Of a DNA stretch of 64,000 bases, positions 6,260 to 62,601 are shown piece by piece. The stretch covers positions 1-64,000 of the forward strand of contig SVPA01000002.1 in assembly GCA_015066085.1 (NCBI GenBank). The letters are read 5' to 3'. The notes under the pieces were generated by a model. That model saw only the letters and a program-made list of their open reading frames with translations. It was not told where the DNA came from and did no database searches. Source of the DNA: Oscillospiraceae bacterium. GTDB lineage: Bacteria; Bacillota; Clostridia; Oscillospirales; Acutalibacteraceae. The translations under genes and the position numbers were made by a program. The stretch's first letter is position 1. Every line of letters starts with the position of its first letter.

Positions 6260-9200
6260 ATGAAAACAAGAACTAAAATTCCTAACAGACTTATTAGCCT
6301 GCTTCTTTGTCTTGCTGTGCTTTCAACCTGTCTGCCTCTGACCGTATTGGCGGCAGATTCAGGAAATACTGCGTTTAACCGAGAAGTCGACGCTAATACT
6401 ATGGACGGTTGGCAAGATTACTTCGATTTAGAAAATCTTGACACCTCAAACGCGGGCGGTGTTTGGACCGATAAATCGGTCTTTCCTAATGCGGACGCCT
6501 TTCCCGATAGCATCAATATGATTGACGACGGAAAAAACTTCCTAACCGCTTTATCAGCAATAGCCGCCAACAAAGAGGTTATCGGTTATTCTACCGTTCC
6601 TACCGATACGGTCTTTGTGCTTGACCTTTCAAATTCAATGTCGGTAAGTTCAATGACCCAACTTATTGAGGCAACCAACCAGGCAATAAACACTCTTCAA
6701 GGAATAAATAACAATAACCGTGTTGGTGTTGTTCTATATTCGGGTAAAAGTGCAAACCGCACCTATTCAACTGCGGTTTCTCGCCTCATGCCTATCGACC
6801 GCTATACAACTACCGACAGAAACGGTGCCTTTATCAACTATTCAAGCGACAATGTTTGGGTAGATGAAACAAAGGTTAGCGGAACAAAGGCTAATATAGA
6901 ATTCCAAACAAAACAACACGACGGCGCTACCTATATTCAGGCAGGGCTTTGGGAAGCCTATAAAATGTTTAATGAGGTGCCCGATTCCGAAGTTATAATC
7001 GGGGGCAACAACTGGCAACGTGGCGAATACCGTATGCCAATAGTTGTTCTTATGTCCGACGGCGCTCCAACCCTTGGTGCCAGCAAATATGATGATGTTG
7101 AAAATCAAACCTATGGCAACAATTCTTTTGGCGCCGATGTCGGCGACGGAAACGATACCGGAATTACGGCGGGGCAAGGTTTCCTTGTTCAACTTACCGC
7201 CTCTTATATCAAAACTCAAATCGAAAATAAATATAAGGTTAAAGATGAAAACGGTGCAGGACGAAGCCTGTTCTACACCCTCGGCTTCAATATTTCTAAT
7301 GATAATAACCCAGATACCGTAACTTCGGGTGATATTGCATACAGCGTACTTAATCCAAACGGTTCAAATATTACCGACGCTATGTGGAGCACCTATAACG
7401 ACTCCAACTCCAACACAATGCAGGTAACCGTTGAGTCAAGAACTTCAAACAGAACAACAAATGTTACAATTACTAAGAATTCTTATGTAACAAACAAAAA
7501 CTATGTAGACGAATATTATTCGGCTTCGGGCGACGGCCTTAGCGGAGCCTTTATCGAAATCGTAAATGAAATTGTTCTTCAGTCCCGTTACTATCCAACC
7601 CATCTTGAAGGCGGAAATCCTGACTTTTCGGGTTATGTTGAGTTTACCGATACTCTCGGCCAGTATATGGAAGTAAAACACATAAACGGAATTCTTTTAG
7701 GAAACACCCTTTTTGACGGTCATATGATGGCATCGAAGTTTGCCGACACTTCATCAAGCGGACTTGGAACGGTAGAAAACCCCACCGAACTTGGCGACGA
7801 GTTTATCCGTTCAGTAAAAACCCGTCTTGGAATTGCAAATACCGCAGACGCTCAACTGCTTGTAAGCAAGGCCTTTGCAGATGGTCAACTTAAATATAAC
7901 GGTGAAAACGACTGGTCTAACTATATCGCGTGGTATGCCGATGTTGACAACAACTATTTAGGCTTCTATGACGAGGACAAAACCGAGCCCGTTCCCGCCG
8001 ATGCTGTTTACATAAATCGCTCTTACGGATTTTTAGGAGCAACTGATGGGCATATAAGAAGCAGCGATATGATGCACGTGTCGGTTCAGGTAAAAACTAA
8101 TATTCAAACAAGAATGCAAACCGTTTCCTGGAAAATTCCCGCCGCCCTTATTCCGATGATTACCTATGAGGTAGCCCTTCAGGGAATAAATGTCGACCTT
8201 GCAAGTGATGTTAAACTTACCGTTAAAGATGCTGATAAAATTTCTCCCATACGCCTTATCTACGAAACAGGCCTTAGGTCTGACATTAACGAGTTTAATG
8301 TTACAAGCATTATGGGCGATATAGTCACCGATTCTCCAAAGAACGACAAAAATCATATAGATAAGGATGGTTATACCCGACTTTTCTGGAACAATTCTTT
8401 TGATATTTCGGCTCCTTCCCACGACCAGCATATTACTGCTATTTCTGAATTTGTTCCCAATAAAGAAAACGAGAGATTTTACTATACCTTTGATTCGGCT
8501 GTCTATACAAAACAAGGCTCTTCCTATGTCTTTGTCAGCACGGATGAAACTTTAAACCCCGATGGAGAGTATTACCATCGTCGTTATGTCTTTAAAGAAG
8601 GGGTTTCAAAACCTGAGTTTTTCTATGAGCCAATGTCTAAGGAATCTATTCTTTCGGCTAAAATAGTGGAAAACTTTGAAACCCTTGACCACCAGACAAC
8701 AGGCGCCTGGGTTGTTCCCAAGGGAACTCCCGCGCGTGAACTTCAAATGTATGATAGGCAAAAAGAGGAGAACCTAACTCGTTCGGCACATATGGTTTTC
8801 CATCCCTACATTTCCGAGCAAAACAATTTTGTTTATGTTGATATGAACCTTGGAAATAACGGCCTTTTGTCCGTAACCCCGGCAACAGGACTTAAAATTT
8901 CCAAAACGGTTGATGTTTTTGAAACAGGAACTTCTGATACCTTTAAATTCCGTATAACCCTATCTAAATCGGGAAGTTTCGATTACTGGATAACCGACCT
9001 TGACAAAATTCCGAGTGCAGACCCTCAAAAAGCAAACTTTACAAACGGCGTTTTCGAATTTGAAATGAAAAAAGACCAGACTTTCTGGCTTTCGGGAATC
9101 TCGGCGGGAACGGATTATGCGGTTGAAGAAATTCCCTTCAATGCCGACTACAAAATAAAGTCTGTTCAAATTAACGGTGTTTCGGCGCAAGATGTTGCAA

Positions 9201-12200
9201 GCGGAACAATAACCCAAAGTCTTATTGAAGATATTGATTTTGAAAATACCGCAATCGGCGAAGGAAATCTTACCGTTACCAAACAAGTTGTCGACAAAGA
9301 CTCAAATTCTGTTGATATCAGCGATAGCGTTAAGTTTACCGCTGAAATATATCTTACAGATGCTTTAGGCACCGCTTTAAGCGGAACCTTTGAATCTTCG
9401 GACGGTAATATCACGCTTGAAAATGGTAAATATACCGCAACTATTGCCGAGGGCGAGTCTTTCGTAATCAGAAATCTGCCCGAAGAAACAAGGTTCTTTG
9501 TTACCGAAAAGAATATTCCAAGCGGATTTACTCTAAACGGCGAAAAGAGTTCTCTTTCGGGAAAAATCAACTCGGAACAGAATAATCAAGCAATTATTTT
9601 CAACACATACGAGCCAGTTTCGGTTAGTGGAGAGGACATTGGAATCGATATCATTAAGGAAATTACAGGTAACCGAACAAACTGGTTAATCGGCGAAAAT
9701 TATTCCTTTAATATTGAAAAACTTACCGACCTTACCTCAAACGGAACCCTGCTTGATTCGGTAACTATTCATTATAACGATACCGATAAGACCCACCTTT
9801 TCAGACTTTCGGGCGAAAACTTTACTAAAGCGGGAATTTATTATTACTGCGTAACCGAACAACAGGGAACGCAGGGCGGTGTGACCTATGACACTGCCAA
9901 GCATATTTTCTCGGTAGAGGTTTCAGATACCGATATGAACGGTAGTTTGGAAATTGTTTCGGTTAAAAACGAAATGAATACCTCGGTTGAAGGGAACTGG
10001 ACCGTAAGTGCACGGTTTAATAATATCTATGCACCCAAAGGTGTTGCAACCGCAACAATCAATATTAAAAAGGAAATAGGTCAAAACTACGCCCTTAGCG
10101 GATATCAGTTTGCTCTTTATGACTCTAACCCGGCAACTAATTCGGGTGCTAACGAAGTAACAAGGTCAAACCTTACAAATTCTCAAGGTCAGGCCGTAAT
10201 AACCCTTAACTACCCCGCAAGTGAAGTTGGAAAAACTTTTAACTATTTCCTTGCCGAAATAAATAGCGGAAAGATAATAAATAATATCAAGTACTCAGAT
10301 AAGGTTTACCCTGTGACAGTTACTGTTATCGACAATCTCGACGGAACTGTTTCTGCAAATCTGCAGATATCGGGTCTTGCTCAAGGAACTACAACTCCTA
10401 CCTTTGTAAATGAGTATATTCCCTCGGCTTCCGACTTTGTAACTATTTCGGGTAAAAAAGAAATTATCGGCGACCGAATTCTCAACGCCAATGAGTTCGA
10501 GTTTAAGTTAACTCCCGTTACCGCAGGTGCGCCTATGCCCGCAGACGATACTGTTAAAAACTTGGCAAGTGGCTCGTTCAGTTTCGGTGCAATAGAGTTT
10601 AAAGACGCTCATAAAGGTCAAACCTTCGTTTATACCGTAACCGAACTTGATGAGCATAAAATCGGCGGTTTTACCTCGTACGACAATTCAGTATATACGG
10701 TTACCGTAACAGTTGTCGACAATGGAAACCAAACCCTGACCGCCACCGCTGTTACAACTAAAAACTCGTCGGCTGTGAGCGATATTGTATTTGAAAACAC
10801 ATACGATGCAACCGACGCAGAAGTTACCCTTAAAGGAACAAAAATACTTGAAGGCAAAACTCTTCAGGCAAATGAATTCGAATTTAAACTAACCGCCGTT
10901 ACAAGCGGTGCCCCAATGCCTCAAAGCAGTCTTGCTAAAAACGCCTCAAACGGAGAATTTGCTTTCGGTAAAATTACCTTCTCCAAGGCGGGTACCTATG
11001 TATATAATGTTACCGAAGTAAACGGCGGAATTCTAAATTACGGTTATGATAGTTCAGTTTATACCGTAACCATAACCGTAACCGATAATGCGCAAGGTTT
11101 GCTTTCGGCTAAAGTAGAACTTTTAAAGAATGACTATCTTGCGAGTCAAATTGTCTTTAAAAACACCTTTGTTCCAACTCCGATTTCATATAACGACCTT
11201 TATACCGACTTTGGCGGAACAAAAATCCTTGAAGGAAGAAATATGTCGCCCGGCGAGTTTGCCTTTGCCCTTATTAACGAAAGCAACGGCCAACAGATTG
11301 GAGAATATGTTTTAAACAACTCAAACGGAAACTTTAAATTCCCCCCAATAACCCTTTCCGGTCCCGGTTCTTACGGCTTTAAGATTGTTGAAGAAAATGG
11401 AATACTTCTTGGTGTTACCTATGATAGAACTTCTTATCATATTCGTCTTGAGGTTGTTCAGGACGATAACGGAATTCTCTCAATTTCCGATAAGCAACTT
11501 ATAAAGGGCACCCCGGTAAAACAAGACATCGGCGGAGTTTTAACCGAAGTCATTTCCTACGAGAATATTACCGATAGCGGTAAAATTGTCTTTACAAATA
11601 CTTATTCTGCTAAACCCGTAAACCTTACCCTTGAGGCAACAAAGGTACTGACCGGCAGAGACCTTGTCGACGGCGAGTTTAAGTTCGACCTACACAAAAC
11701 CGACAGCACCTTTGCCTATTCAAGTTCAACCCTTGTTCAAAATGATGTTGTTTTAACCTTAAATCCGGATAAAACGGGCAGAATAACCTTTACTGAACAG
11801 GAGTTTGACAAAGAGGGAATCTACTACTATGTTATTCTTGAAGATGAGCAAAGCGAAAAGGGTATAACGGTTGACCAAACCGAATATAAGGTTCAAATTT
11901 CGGTTGTAGATGACCTTATCGGAAATCTTAAAATCTCTGATATAAAGGTTAACGGAAATACTGTTTCGGGCGATATCTTTGATAGCGTTGTTTTCCGAAA
12001 CACTTATGAGGCAGCCGCTACTGGAATTGTGATTAAAGGAACTAAAACCCTAAACGGCCGCGACCTTAAAGACGGCGAGTTCTCGTTTGAACTTTATAGC
12101 CAAAGCGGTCAAAAAATTGAAACGGTTAAGAACGCCCAAAACGGAAGTTTCGAGTTTAGTGAGATTCCCGTGCAGCAAGCAGGGGAGTACACCTATACCG

Positions 12201-12502
12201 TCCGCGAGTTAAAGGGCGAAGCCGAAGGCATAACCTATGACTCGGCGGTTTATACCGTTAAGGTAACCGTAACCGATAATCTCGACGGAACCTTTAAGGT
12301 AGAATATGACTACTTAAAGGGAACAAAAACGGAAGAAAGCATAATCTTTGTTAACGCCTATGCTGAGCCCGTTGTGCCCGAAATACCCGAAACGGGCGAC
12401 AATACAAATATTCTTCTTTGGATAGCCCTTCTTCTCGTTAGCGGCGCCGGAGTGATAACCACAACCGTTTACACGGTTAAAAGAAAATCCAAAGAAAAAT
12501 AA
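6260..12502 (+). CDS. giant LPXTG-anchored surface protein: VWA domain plus tandem Spy0128/FctA-type isopeptide pilin domains
   Basis: signal peptide; VFVLDLSNSMS MIDAS (DxSxS); at least seven repeats such as VTLKGTKILEGKTLQANEFEFKL; C-terminal IPETGDN + TM + KRKSKEK. Confidence 0.9.
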   Translation: MKTRTKIPNRLISLLLCLAVLSTCLPLTVLAADSGNTAFNREVDANTMDGWQDYFDLENLDTSNAGGVWTDKSVFPNADAFPDSINMIDDGKNFLTALSAIAANKEVIGYSTVPTDTVFVLDLSNSMSVSSMTQLIEATNQAINTLQGINNNNRVGVVLYSGKSANRTYSTAVSRLMPIDRYTTTDRNGAFINYSSDNVWVDETKVSGTKANIEFQTKQHDGATYIQAGLWEAYKMFNEVPDSEVIIGGNNWQRGEYRMPIVVLMSDGAPTLGASKYDDVENQTYGNNSFGADVGDGNDTGITAGQGFLVQLTASYIKTQIENKYKVKDENGAGRSLFYTLGFNISNDNNPDTVTSGDIAYSVLNPNGSNITDAMWSTYNDSNSNTMQVTVESRTSNRTTNVTITKNSYVTNKNYVDEYYSASGDGLSGAFIEIVNEIVLQSRYYPTHLEGGNPDFSGYVEFTDTLGQYMEVKHINGILLGNTLFDGHMMASKFADTSSSGLGTVENPTELGDEFIRSVKTRLGIANTADAQLLVSKAFADGQLKYNGENDWSNYIAWYADVDNNYLGFYDEDKTEPVPADAVYINRSYGFLGATDGHIRSSDMMHVSVQVKTNIQTRMQTVSWKIPAALIPMITYEVALQGINVDLASDVKLTVKDADKISPIRLIYETGLRSDINEFNVTSIMGDIVTDSPKNDKNHIDKDGYTRLFWNNSFDISAPSHDQHITAISEFVPNKENERFYYTFDSAVYTKQGSSYVFVSTDETLNPDGEYYHRRYVFKEGVSKPEFFYEPMSKESILSAKIVENFETLDHQTTGAWVVPKGTPARELQMYDRQKEENLTRSAHMVFHPYISEQNNFVYVDMNLGNNGLLSVTPATGLKISKTVDVFETGTSDTFKFRITLSKSGSFDYWITDLDKIPSADPQKANFTNGVFEFEMKKDQTFWLSGISAGTDYAVEEIPFNADYKIKSVQINGVSAQDVASGTITQSLIEDIDFENTAIGEGNLTVTKQVVDKDSNSVDISDSVKFTAEIYLTDALGTALSGTFESSDGNITLENGKYTATIAEGESFVIRNLPEETRFFVTEKNIPSGFTLNGEKSSLSGKINSEQNNQAIIFNTYEPVSVSGEDIGIDIIKEITGNRTNWLIGENYSFNIEKLTDLTSNGTLLDSVTIHYNDTDKTHLFRLSGENFTKAGIYYYCVTEQQGTQGGVTYDTAKHIFSVEVSDTDMNGSLEIVSVKNEMNTSVEGNWTVSARFNNIYAPKGVATATINIKKEIGQNYALSGYQFALYDSNPATNSGANEVTRSNLTNSQGQAVITLNYPASEVGKTFNYFLAEINSGKIINNIKYSDKVYPVTVTVIDNLDGTVSANLQISGLAQGTTTPTFVNEYIPSASDFVTISGKKEIIGDRILNANEFEFKLTPVTAGAPMPADDTVKNLASGSFSFGAIEFKDAHKGQTFVYTVTELDEHKIGGFTSYDNSVYTVTVTVVDNGNQTLTATAVTTKNSSAVSDIVFENTYDATDAEVTLKGTKILEGKTLQANEFEFKLTAVTSGAPMPQSSLAKNASNGEFAFGKITFSKAGTYVYNVTEVNGGILNYGYDSSVYTVTITVTDNAQGLLSAKVELLKNDYLASQIVFKNTFVPTPISYNDLYTDFGGTKILEGRNMSPGEFAFALINESNGQQIGEYVLNNSNGNFKFPPITLSGPGSYGFKIVEENGILLGVTYDRTSYHIRLEVVQDDNGILSISDKQLIKGTPVKQDIGGVLTEVISYENITDSGKIVFTNTYSAKPVNLTLEATKVLTGRDLVDGEFKFDLHKTDSTFAYSSSTLVQNDVVLTLNPDKTGRITFTEQEFDKEGIYYYVILEDEQSEKGITVDQTEYKVQISVVDDLIGNLKISDIKVNGNTVSGDIFDSVVFRNTYEAAATGIVIKGTKTLNGRDLKDGEFSFELYSQSGQKIETVKNAQNGSFEFSEIPVQQAGEYTYTVRELKGEAEGITYDSAVYTVKVTVTDNLDGTFKVEYDYLKGTKTEESIIFVNAYAEPVVPEIPETGDNTNILLWIALLLVSGAGVITTTVYTVKRKSKEK

Positions 12503-12543: not shown

Positions 12544-12588
12544 ATTTTATTTCGGTAAACGCCGAACCTTATGTGGTTCAAGTCCTAC

Positions 12589-12871
12589 TTCACAGGTTCT
12601 CGTCCTGCCATATACAAAAAAGATATTTTGGATAAGTTTGCGAACAGATTCGAACTCTCGTAAAAATGAAATCCTTGCTGATGCAAGGATGAAATCAGCT
12701 AACGCTGATGAAATCTTCGGCTTTGCCTCAGATGAAATTAAATCCACCCACTCGCCGTCGAGGCGAATTTCATCCAACGAAGTTGGATTTCATCGTCGAA
12801 AACGATTTCACCCACCCGCAAGGGTGGATTTAGTTGAAAACGACAAGTTTCTGTCGAAACTTGTCGTTTTC
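12589..12871 (-). repeat. hairpin-array element downstream of tRNA-Leu (outer copy)
   Basis: many small inverted repeats separated by gaaatc-type spacers; head hairpin AACGACAAGTTTCGACAGAAACTTGTCGTT and tail GAGTTCGAATCTGTTCGCAAA...AAAATATCTTTTTTGTA. Confidence 0.7.
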
Positions 12872-12893
12872 TGGTGCGGGTGACAGGACTTGA
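12872..12893 (-). repeat. 22-bp duplicate of the tRNA-Leu 3' end
   Basis: tggtgcgggtgacaggacttga identical to 13076-13097. Confidence 0.9.
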
Positions 12894-13075
12894 CCGCCTG
12901 CTTCGCATACTATCCGCTTGTCGACCCAAGGCTACGCCTTCGGTACCCGACTGCACGCTCTGGCTAAAAAACAGTACACTGTACTGTTTTTCTAAACGCC
13001 AGACCTTCACAGGTTCAAGTCCTGCCATATACAAAAATTAAGAGGAACCAACCTTGCGGTCGATTCCTCTTAATT
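12894..13075 (-). repeat. inner element between tRNA-Leu and the duplicated tRNA 3' end
   Basis: flanked by 22-bp direct repeats; contains ttcacaggttcaagtcctgccatatacaaaaa (13006-13037), 30/32 identical to 12589-12620. Confidence 0.65.
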
Positions 13076-13158
13076 TGGTGCGGGTGACAGGACTTGAACC
13101 TGCAAGCACGAGGCACTGGTTCCTAAGACCAGCGTGTCTGCCATTCCACCACACCCGC
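13076..13158 (-). tRNA. tRNA-Leu (anticodon UAG)
   Basis: GCGGGTG acceptor, CTGGT-CTTAGGA-ACCAG anticodon arm, GGTTCAAGTCC T-arm, encoded CCA. Confidence 0.93.
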
Positions 13159-46122: not shown

Positions 46123-46215
46123 TGCCGAAGGCAATATCACTCGGCTTTTAGCCGAATATAACTGCGAAGCAATACAACTCGCCTTTAGGCGAATAAAACT
46201 GAAAAAACAGAAGGC
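46123..46215. repeat. 93-bp hairpin-array repeat, copy 1
   Basis: tgccgaaggcaatatcactcggcttttagccgaatataactgcgaagcaatacaactcgcctttaggcgaataaaactgaaaaaacagaaggc. Confidence 0.9.
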
Positions 46216-46363
46216 GTTCACACTGTATTTTTAATGCTCTTAAGCATTAAAAAACAAACAAAAACAGTGATATTGTGAGACGGACGTCTCACAGTGATAT
46301 TTTTGATAAATCAAAAGTGATATTAAAACCTGCGGTTTTAGTTATATTTTATTCACCTTAAAC

Positions 46364-46456
46364 TGCCGAAGGCAATATCACTCGGCTTTTAGCCGAATAC
46401 AACTGCGAAGCAATACAACTCGCCTTTAGGCGAATAAAACTGAAAAAACAGAAGGC
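46364..46456. repeat. 93-bp hairpin-array repeat, copy 2
   Basis: identical to copy 1 except one t/c difference. Confidence 0.9.
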
Positions 46457-46479
46457 AAACGCCTTCTGTTTTTTCATAC

Positions 46480-46827
46480 CCACTCGGTCTGTAAGCCGGG
46501 TTCTGTACGGAAAATTCCGTGACGGTCATCTATCTCGATTTGCCGTTGCCGACAAACTCCAGCCGCTTTTCGAAACACATCGGGCAAATGTATCGTTTCA
46601 CTTAGCGTTGCATCGGATAGAGTTTACAGACGGGAGATGTCTCCATTCCCGTGGTGAGCTCTTACCTCGCCTTTCCACCCTTACCACAAAAAGTGGCGGT
46701 ATATCTCTGTTGCACTATTCCTAAGGTCACCCTCGGCGGCCGTTAGCCGTTATCCTGCCCTTTGAAGCCCGGACTTTCCTCAGACAGTCGAATAAATCCG
46801 CTGTCCGCAACCGTCCAACCGACTGAG
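46480..46827 (-). ncRNA. rnpB: RNase P RNA
   Basis: minus strand CUCAGUCGGUUGGACGGUUGCGG ... GAGGAAAGUCCGGGCU ... CCUUAGGAAUAGUGC ... ACAGAACCCGGCUUACAGACCGAGU. Confidence 0.93.
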
Positions 46828-62110: not shown

Positions 62111-62185
62111 TGGGGCATCGCCAAGCGGTAAGGCAACGGACTCTGACTCCGTCATTCCTAGGTTCGAATCCTAGTGCCCCAGCCA
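62111..62185 (+). tRNA. tRNA-Gln (anticodon CUG)
   Basis: TGGGGCA/TGCCCCA acceptor, ACGGA-CTCTGAC-TCCGT anticodon arm, GGTTCGAATCC, encoded CCA. Confidence 0.94.
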
Positions 62186-62461
62186 AGAAAAACGACAAGT
62201 TTCGACAGAAACTTGTCGTTTTTCAATGATATCCGTTCTTCCGAGAACGGATGATATATCTTCGATATGATATCCACCTTCGGTGGACGATATATGCCTG
62301 CGGCATATGAAGGAACGGATATTATATCATACTTGCGAAGCAAGTATATCACTCGGCAACGCCGTATATCATATCGTGCAAGCGATATATCATTATTTAT
62401 GCAAGAGTTCGAATTCATACGCAATAATACCGAAAATATCTTTTTTGTAGCCCCCAGCCAA
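62186..62461 (+). repeat. hairpin-array element abutting tRNA-Gln 3' end
   Basis: head AACGACAAGTTTCGACAGAAACTTGTCGTT, about seven small hairpins with gatatat/atatcat spacers, tail GAGTTCGAATTC..ACGCAA..AAAATATCTTTTTTGTA, then GCCCCCAGCCAA resembling the tRNA 3' end. Confidence 0.75.
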
Positions 62462-62500
62462 AAAAACAAAAGCCAACCGTCGCGGTTGGCTTTTGTTTTT
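62460..62500. terminator. strong hairpin terminator
   Basis: aaaaacaaaagccaaccgtcgcggttggcttttgtttttt. Confidence 0.85.
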
Positions 62501-62601
62501 TGTTTGTGGCGTTAATCGGAGGCGAATCGTTTTGCCAAAGGCAAAACGGTCGTCGAAGCAGTCCGAAACGCGCGTTAGCGTTTTGCGGTCATTATGTTGT
62601 A

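What the first reader, a model, noticed from the sequence alone, without database searches (positions are those of the whole stretch)
12589..13158. Nested hairpin elements stacked on the 3' end of tRNA-Leu(UAG), with a 22-bp duplication of the tRNA end
Reading away from tRNA-Leu on the minus strand: the tRNA, a terminator-like hairpin, a 180-bp element, an exact 22-bp copy of the tRNA 3' end (12872-12893 versus 13076-13097), and then a second element made of many small hairpins. The two elements end in nearly the same sequence, ttcacaggttcNNgtcctgccatatacaaaaa (30/32 identity, 12589-12620 and 13006-13037), which itself looks like a T-arm in opposite orientation. This is what two successive site-specific insertions into a tRNA 3' end would leave, but the elements are too short to encode an integrase.
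Basis: seen in the sequence. Interest (0 to 1): 0.85.

Follow-up and report, generated by a model that had tools for sequence, protein, structure and literature searches.

The report
Self-matching antisense elements at tRNA ends
Downstream of this leucine tRNA gene lies a small non-coding element that, like dozens of relatives at other tRNA genes in gut Clostridia, carries a 13-letter antisense copy of its own insertion site plus a spare copy of the tRNA's end, which suggests an undescribed family of tiny mobile elements that read or rewrite their own address.

Summary
The 22-bp copy is exact, and the "T-arm in opposite orientation" is the key to it. Element A (12894-13075, minus strand) reads: terminator hairpin, antisense of the host T-arm, GNRA loop, mimic of the 5' T-stem strand, a ~100-nt structured core unknown to Rfam, then a copy of the tRNA 3' end. 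A covariance model of the core finds copies in 38 of 121 genera of the family and 36 of 40 species of a sister genus. In 66 element/host pairs the antisense arm is complementary to its own tRNA at positions 51-63 with sharp borders. Shuffling hosts never reproduces the fit. The 3' copy covers positions 55/59-76.

Syntenic empty sites exist: Arg-His spacing is 6-8 nt empty versus 241-441 nt filled; Ser-Ser is 70-76 nt versus 240-591 nt, with 1-3 elements. Cores cluster by genome across different host tRNAs, so the elements appear to spread while their arms are re-matched (concerted evolution is not excluded). At tRNA-Pro(GGG) the whole architecture moves to the anticodon arm. At least three other core types share the layout. 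No reverse transcriptase is present in three carrier genomes, and no mobilising enzyme was identified. The second element is a Gut-1 (RF01706) hairpin array.

Mobility: likely. Guide-directed insertion: plausible, unproven.

The parts
13076..13158 (-). tRNA-Leu(UAG), host gene; T-loop at the insertion junction
   Evidence: ARAGORN; RF00005
13035..13075 (-). terminator-like hairpin directly after CCA (aattaagaggaatcgaccgcaaggttggttcctcttaattt)
   Evidence: sequence; hairpin score
13011..13023 (-). 13-nt antisense arm (aggacttgaacct), exact complement of host tRNA positions 51-63; first part of element A proper
   Evidence: footprint over 66 loci
13002..13010 (-). GNRA loop (gtga) and mimic of the host 5' T-stem strand (aggtc), pairing with the antisense arm
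   Evidence: helix 1; host-specific mimic
12894..13017 (-). structured core of element A (covariance model R1; starts inside the antisense arm), no Rfam family
12872..12893 (-). exact 22-nt copy of the host tRNA 3' end (T55-A76)
12836..12871 (-). start of second element (B): hairpin gaaaacgacaagtttcgacagaaacttgtcgttttc directly after CCA; near-identical hairpin at tRNA-Gln 62185-62223 (+)
12762..12836 (-). Gut-1 RNA (RF01706), 75.3 bits
12664..12743 (+). second, inverted Gut-1-like hairpin run (41 bits, below cut-off)
12612..12661 (-). conserved right end of B (gagttcgaat...ccaaaatatcttttttgta)
   Evidence: same end at tRNA-Gln, Pro, Ser-derived, Trp, Leu(GAG) loci
12589..12620 (-). remnant of an A-type left module (ggcaggacgagaacctgtgaag), variant arm also seen at tRNA-Pro(TGG) of relatives
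12545..12588 (-). second A-type left-module remnant (taggacttgaaccacataaggttcggcgttta) whose arm fits tRNA-Leu(UAG)

Best explanation
Element A is one copy of a family of non-autonomous, non-coding elements of about 180-210 bp that insert at the T-loop of tRNA and tmRNA genes (at tRNA-Pro(GGG), in the anticodon arm). Shown: layout, host-matched arms, copied tRNA 3' end, empty sites, and clustering of cores by genome. Inferred: the element is transcribed in the tRNA direction and folds (GNRA loop, G-U pairs, covariation). Inferred: its 13-nt antisense arm recognises the target strand 5 nt upstream and 8 nt downstream of the junction, while the core binds an enzyme supplied in trans. Insertion leaves tRNA positions ~55/59-76 and often the trailer duplicated, so the host tRNA stays intact and units can stack in tandem. 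Because copies with closely related cores carry different arms that each fit their own tRNA, the arm must be renewed from the new target during or soon after insertion, probably by copying the target strand. The enzyme is unknown. The neighbouring element B is a different, Gut-1-type hairpin repeat that inserted directly after a CCA end.
For: Arm complementary to own host at tRNA 51-63 in 92-100% of 66 pairs, falling to 32% at 50 and 59% at 64; at variable positions 51/57/59/63 own host 94/94/97/92% versus 66/52/36/55% for other hosts. Host shuffles never reach the fit (965 versus at most 836 in 5000). T5 mimic also host-specific (47/70, shuffled mean 29, max 38). Copy of tRNA 3' end at least 16/20 in 56 of 70. 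71 of 113 copies lie 27-69 nt after an intact tRNA/tmRNA on the same strand, most at 40-69. Empty and filled syntenic sites. Copy number 0-14 among 40 congeneric species. Cores cluster by genome across different tRNAs, and near-identical cores occur in different genera. Covariation 0.441 versus 0.152 in shuffles; G-T wobbles 154/123/83 versus A-C 24/10/12, so the tRNA-sense strand folds. At tRNA-Pro(GGG) the arm, mimic and copy all shift to the anticodon arm.
Against: No enzyme identified; no excised form or transcript shown. Arm renewal is inferred; concerted evolution of cores between old loci, or selection for arms that fit, could produce part of the pattern. The permutation and footprint tests use related elements and related tRNAs, so the pairs are not fully independent. 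Empty versus filled sites are between species, not strains. No carrier phage, plasmid or virus found.
Confidence: 0.5

Rival explanations
1. DNA-level site-specific recombination: a tyrosine recombinase in trans (Xer or integron-like) uses the T-arm as attachment site. The antisense arm makes a folded single strand into a double-stranded site, as in integron attC, and the core is only a compact spacer.
For: T-loop junction is a usual sublocation for tyrosine integrases (own knowledge); tandem cassette-like arrays; several unrelated cores share the same flanks; Xer-type recombinases in G000, and PF00589 proteins of similar size in G131 and G140.
Against: G002 carries several elements but no Xer-sized recombinase was found in it; conserved unpaired positions and GNRA loops in the core suggest more than a spacer; at tRNA-Pro(GGG) the junction is not at an equivalent place in the stem-loop.
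Confidence: 0.22
2. The elements are antisense regulators or processing modules of their own tRNA (RNA function), multiplied by tandem duplication and gene conversion rather than mobile; the arm is kept complementary by selection for binding the T-arm.
For: Precise 13-nt complementarity to the host tRNA, strand-specific RNA-like folding, position right behind the tRNA or inside tRNA operons.
Against: Sporadic presence, empty sites, 0-14 copies among congeners, decayed outer copies and truncated units; G153 has a different core type where G131 and G191 have A at tRNA-Arg(ACG).
Confidence: 0.15
3. HUH (Y1) transposase in trans, of the REP-associated tyrosine transposase kind, moves the hairpin elements as single strands.
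For: REP-associated tyrosine transposase-like genes in G000 (two; one just above, one just below the NCBIfam cut-off) and in G131 (below cut-off); hairpin-rich elements.
Against: No Y1 match in G191 and G002, which carry elements (the model may miss distant ones). The two G000 genes contain another palindromic repeat (gtagggcg...), a more likely partner, inside their own reading frames. REPINs are not known to copy target sequence into themselves (own knowledge).
Confidence: 0.08
4. Reverse transcription of a pre-tRNA 3' end (T-loop to terminator) joined to the element RNA.
For: Copied segment runs from the T-loop to the end of the terminator in several loci, like a cDNA of the transcript 3' end.
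Against: No RVT_1 match in G000, G002 or G131, all carriers.
Confidence: 0.03

Closest known systems
Integrative elements (phages, ICEs, islands) in tRNA 3' ends
   Same: Direct repeat of the tRNA 3' end, junction in the T-loop, host gene restored by the element, tandem accretion
   Different: About 200 bp, no integrase gene, antisense copy of the site in every unit, many different tRNAs served by one core family within a genome
IS110/IS1111 bridge RNA
   Same: A structured non-coding RNA with a guide that spans the insertion junction (own knowledge)
   Different: Here one contiguous 13-nt antisense arm that differs in every copy and fits the present site; no transposase in the element; presence of an IS110 transposase in trans not tested
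Group I intron internal guide sequence
   Same: Antisense strand ordered 5'-(3' exon complement)(5' exon complement)-3' across the junction (own knowledge)
   Different: No group I family hit in Rfam, core only ~100 nt, a terminator or spacer lies between tRNA and element, mimic of the 5' exon lies after the arm
Integron attC cassettes
   Same: Tandem cassettes, arms that pair across the crossover, variable inner parts
   Different: No integron integrase identified; multi-branched conserved core; arm differs with each host tRNA
REPIN/RAYT
   Same: Short hairpin repeats that spread without own enzyme; RAYT-like genes are present in some carriers
   Different: Site-specific in tRNA genes with target-derived arms
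Gut-1 RNA (RF01706)
   Same: Element B contains one full-scoring Gut-1
   Different: Gut-1 was described as a gut-metagenome ncRNA (PMC2864571). In this genome all 5 hits over the cut-off lie just behind a tRNA CCA end or a copy of one, and each is paired with an inverted lower-scoring copy

Membership tests
tRNA-targeted integrative elements (tyrosine integrase type) | direct repeat of tRNA 3' end flanking the insert | tested here: met
   (56 of 70 copies at least 16/20)
tRNA-targeted integrative elements (tyrosine integrase type) | element-borne integrase gene | tested here: not met
   units of ~180-210 bp; only open frames under 100 aa, overlapping the repeats
tRNA-targeted integrative elements (tyrosine integrase type) | empty sites in relatives | tested here: met
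Integron cassettes | IntI-type integrase in carrier genome | tested here: inconclusive
   the three G000 recombinases score far below the integron-integrase cut-offs; other carriers' recombinases not typed
Integron cassettes | attC folding as a single hairpin with R/L boxes | tested here: not met
   multi-branched fold
Group I intron | conserved catalytic core (Rfam Intron_gpI) | tested here: not met
   no match at E up to 5
IS110 bridge RNA system | IS110 transposase (DEDD + serine) in carrier | not tested
Retroelement | reverse transcriptase in carrier genome | tested here: not met
   absent from G000, G002, G131; present in G140
REPIN/RAYT | RAYT gene in carrier genome | tested here: inconclusive
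   found in G000 and G131 (mostly just below cut-off), no hit in G002 and G191
Gut-1 RNA RF01706 (element B only) | covariance-model score over the gathering cut-off | tested here: met
   75.3 bits versus 50
Gut-1 RNA RF01706 (element A) | covariance-model score over the gathering cut-off | tested here: not met
   no Gut-1 match in 12894-13075

The most novel reading that the evidence does not exclude
A class of self-retargeting mobile RNAs: each ~200-bp non-coding element carries a 13-nt antisense guide for its own insertion site, inserts into tRNA genes with an enzyme borrowed from the host, and acquires a new guide copied from each new target.
Probability: 0.3. Interest if true: 0.95.

Novelty: categorically new. 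Interest (0 to 1): 0.85.

Why it matters
Known guide-bearing elements keep one guide per lineage. Here elements with closely related cores sit at different tRNAs with arms that each fit their own site to a sharp 13-nt window, which points to a way of renewing the guide at each move. If so it would be a new principle of targeted insertion, with an unknown enzyme to be found in small (1.3-2 Mb) genomes where the candidates are few. If instead the RNAs act on their tRNA, it would be a widespread unknown layer of tRNA control in gut Clostridia. It also re-reads Rfam's Gut-1 as a hairpin repeat tied to tRNA ends in this genome.

Tried and rejected
Rfam with lax threshold for element A: only tRNA, Gut-1 and chance miRNA-type hits. 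Orthologues of the neighbouring 534-aa protein to find the same tRNA-Leu locus in relatives: only distant matches; the best (G003) has tRNA-Leu with no element, but synteny is not the same. Carriers among viral contigs (two exact patterns), phages and plasmids: none. Reverse transcription: no RVT_1 in three carriers. Exact mirror symmetry of T-arm and antisense arm around the terminator: distances are equal on average (39.3 versus 39.8 nt) but scatter by 3.7 nt with weak correlation 0.34, so not claimed as a rule. Aminopeptidase flank of tRNA-Ser(GGA) as a probe for empty sites: homologues not next to tRNAs. Literature searches for tRNA-end non-coding elements gave no description (the library is open-access only).

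Full report
Check of the observation. On the minus strand the window reads tRNA-Leu(UAG) (13158-13076), a terminator-like hairpin, a 182-nt stretch up to an exact 22-nt copy of the tRNA 3' end (12893-12872), then a hairpin-rich second element. Both elements fold far better than dinucleotide shuffles (z -5.1 and -7.6). The 30/32 repeat is also real. It is the left module of an A-type element, present once at the start of element A (13006-13037) and once as a remnant beyond the second element (12589-12620). A further remnant (12545-12588) carries an arm that fits tRNA-Leu(UAG).

Anatomy of element A. Behind the terminator comes an antisense of the host T-arm (aggacttgaacct for positions 51-63), a GNRA tetraloop, a mimic of the 5' T-stem strand (aggtc), a ~100-nt core, and then positions 55-76 of the same tRNA. 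An alignment of 15 copies gives 38 base pairs, 21 of them with compensatory changes and 97.7% of cells paired; sliding the partner by 1-3 columns drops this to about 40%. On three larger alignments G-T wobbles outnumber A-C mismatches 6- to 12-fold, so the strand that folds is the tRNA-sense strand. Nothing in Rfam matches the core.

The arm is specific to the host. A covariance model found 113 usable copies. Of these, 71 lie 27-69 nt behind an intact tRNA or tmRNA on the same strand, most at 40-69 nt: Leu, Pro, Arg, Ser, Lys, Trp, Glu, Thr, Val, Gln, Met, Ala, Asn and tmRNA. Many of the rest are second or third units, sit behind tRNA 3' halves, or start at a contig edge. In 71 non-redundant pairs the arm matches its own host at 13.6 of 17 positions against 11.2 for other hosts, and 5000 host shuffles never come near. 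By position, complementarity is 92-100% from tRNA nucleotide 51 to 63 and collapses outside (32% at 50, 59% at 64). At the positions where tRNAs differ it is 92-97% for the own host against 36-80% for others. The copied tRNA end is at least 94% identical from nucleotide 59 to 76 and partly so from 55 to 58. These pairs share ancestry, so the tests are not on independent events; the footprint is nevertheless sharp.

An informative exception. At tRNA-Pro(GGG) of three genomes the arm is antisense to GGGTCAAGAGGTC in the anticodon arm, and the copied end starts at CAAGAGGTC. The whole layout has moved with the insertion site. T-loop and anticodon sites share GG-N-TCAAG. The arm therefore follows the site and not the T-arm as such.

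Other cores, same layout. A survey of all tRNA genes in G131 and most of those in the window's genome shows at least three further, unrelated cores between an antisense arm and a copied tRNA end, for example at Glu, Thr, Gly and Ala in G131 and at Arg(ACG), Glu, Pro(GGG) and Ser(GCT) in the window's genome. tRNA-Arg(ACG) of the window's genome has an unusual T-stem (GGGTG), and both its arm and its mimic follow it.

Mobility. In the genus of G131, 40 species carry 0 to 14 copies. Between tRNA-Arg(TCT) and tRNA-His there are 8 nt in G153 and 6 nt in G131, but 241, 441, 251 and 241 nt with elements in G191, G159, G177 and G189. Between tRNA-Ser(TGA) and tRNA-Ser(GCT) there are 76 and 70 nt in G153 and G131, but 245, 240 and 591 nt in G161, G162 and G191, with 1, 1 and 3 units. 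At tRNA-Arg(ACG) G153 has a type-2 array where G131 and G191 have type A. A tree of 74 cores with the arms removed clusters copies by genome across different host tRNAs: the six of the window's genome at five different identified hosts plus one host-less copy, and likewise in G191 and G140. Near-identical or nested cores in different genera (G127/G002; G140 within the window genus) suggest horizontal transfer. The alignment is short and deep branches are weak. Concerted evolution could mimic part of the genome clustering; empty sites, truncated units and swapped core types argue against that alone.

Enzyme. No RVT_1 protein in G000, G002 or G131. G000 has two Xer-type recombinases and one unplaced tyrosine recombinase; G131 and G140 have PF00589 proteins of similar size; only two long recombinases were found in G002, which is 93% complete. 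REP-associated tyrosine transposase-like genes occur in G000 and G131, but the G000 genes hold a different palindromic repeat inside their own frames. None is linked to the elements. No copies were found in viral contigs, phages or plasmids.

Element B. It contains Gut-1 RNA (RF01706) and an inverted Gut-1-like run. All five Gut-1 hits above cut-off in this genome start about 40-65 nt behind a tRNA CCA end or a copy of one: Pro, Leu and a Ser-derived 3' end behind element A, Thr, and Gln. Weaker hits lie in other intergenic regions, including next to RNase P. Gut-1 was published as a human-gut-metagenome ncRNA (PMC2864571). Here it behaves as a hairpin repeat.

How it probably works, and what is inferred. 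Shown: layout, host match, copied end, empty sites, clustering by genome. Inferred: transcription (supported by elements lying inside what were 6-8-nt tRNA spacers, hence probably co-transcribed), recognition of the target by the 13-nt arm, supply of the enzyme in trans, and renewal of the arm at each move. The strongest rivals are an attC-like DNA recombination site and an antisense regulator of the tRNA.

Verdict. The pattern is well supported; the mechanism is open.

Noticed in passing
window 46129-46442 (minus): Two weak Gut-1-like hairpin runs, near copies of each other, directly behind the RNase P RNA gene (46476-46826).
   Followed up: partly
window 62185-62460 (+): A B-type (Gut-1) array directly behind tRNA-Gln(CUG), with a near-identical terminator hairpin to 12836-12871 and a displaced tRNA-like end (gcccccagcca) at its far side.
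   Followed up: partly
window 62500-62600: A further hairpin-rich stretch behind the tRNA-Gln terminator that resembles the type-3 cores at other tRNAs of this genome.
   Followed up: no
L061, L071, L077, L086: tmRNA genes are also targets: A-type elements behind tmRNA in G000 and G097, Gut-1 arrays behind tmRNA in G047 and G058.
   Followed up: yes
L114, L117, L003: Elements behind isolated tRNA 3' halves, as left when a larger element has integrated into the anticodon arm of the tRNA.
   Followed up: no
L130: An A-type element for tRNA-Leu(GAG) lies directly behind an open frame whose end resembles a site-specific recombinase, running into a GCACCA end instead of a tRNA.
   Followed up: no
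L299:1542-2057, L300:1458-1955: REP-associated tyrosine transposase-like genes of the window's genome; L300 contains inverted palindromic repeats (gtagggcggggg...) inside its reading frame, and L299 a similar pair (gtagggcgcgacgtc...).
   Followed up: partly
window 6260-12502 (+): 2080-aa surface protein with repeated domains and an IPETG cell-wall sorting signal just upstream of the array's far end.
   Followed up: no
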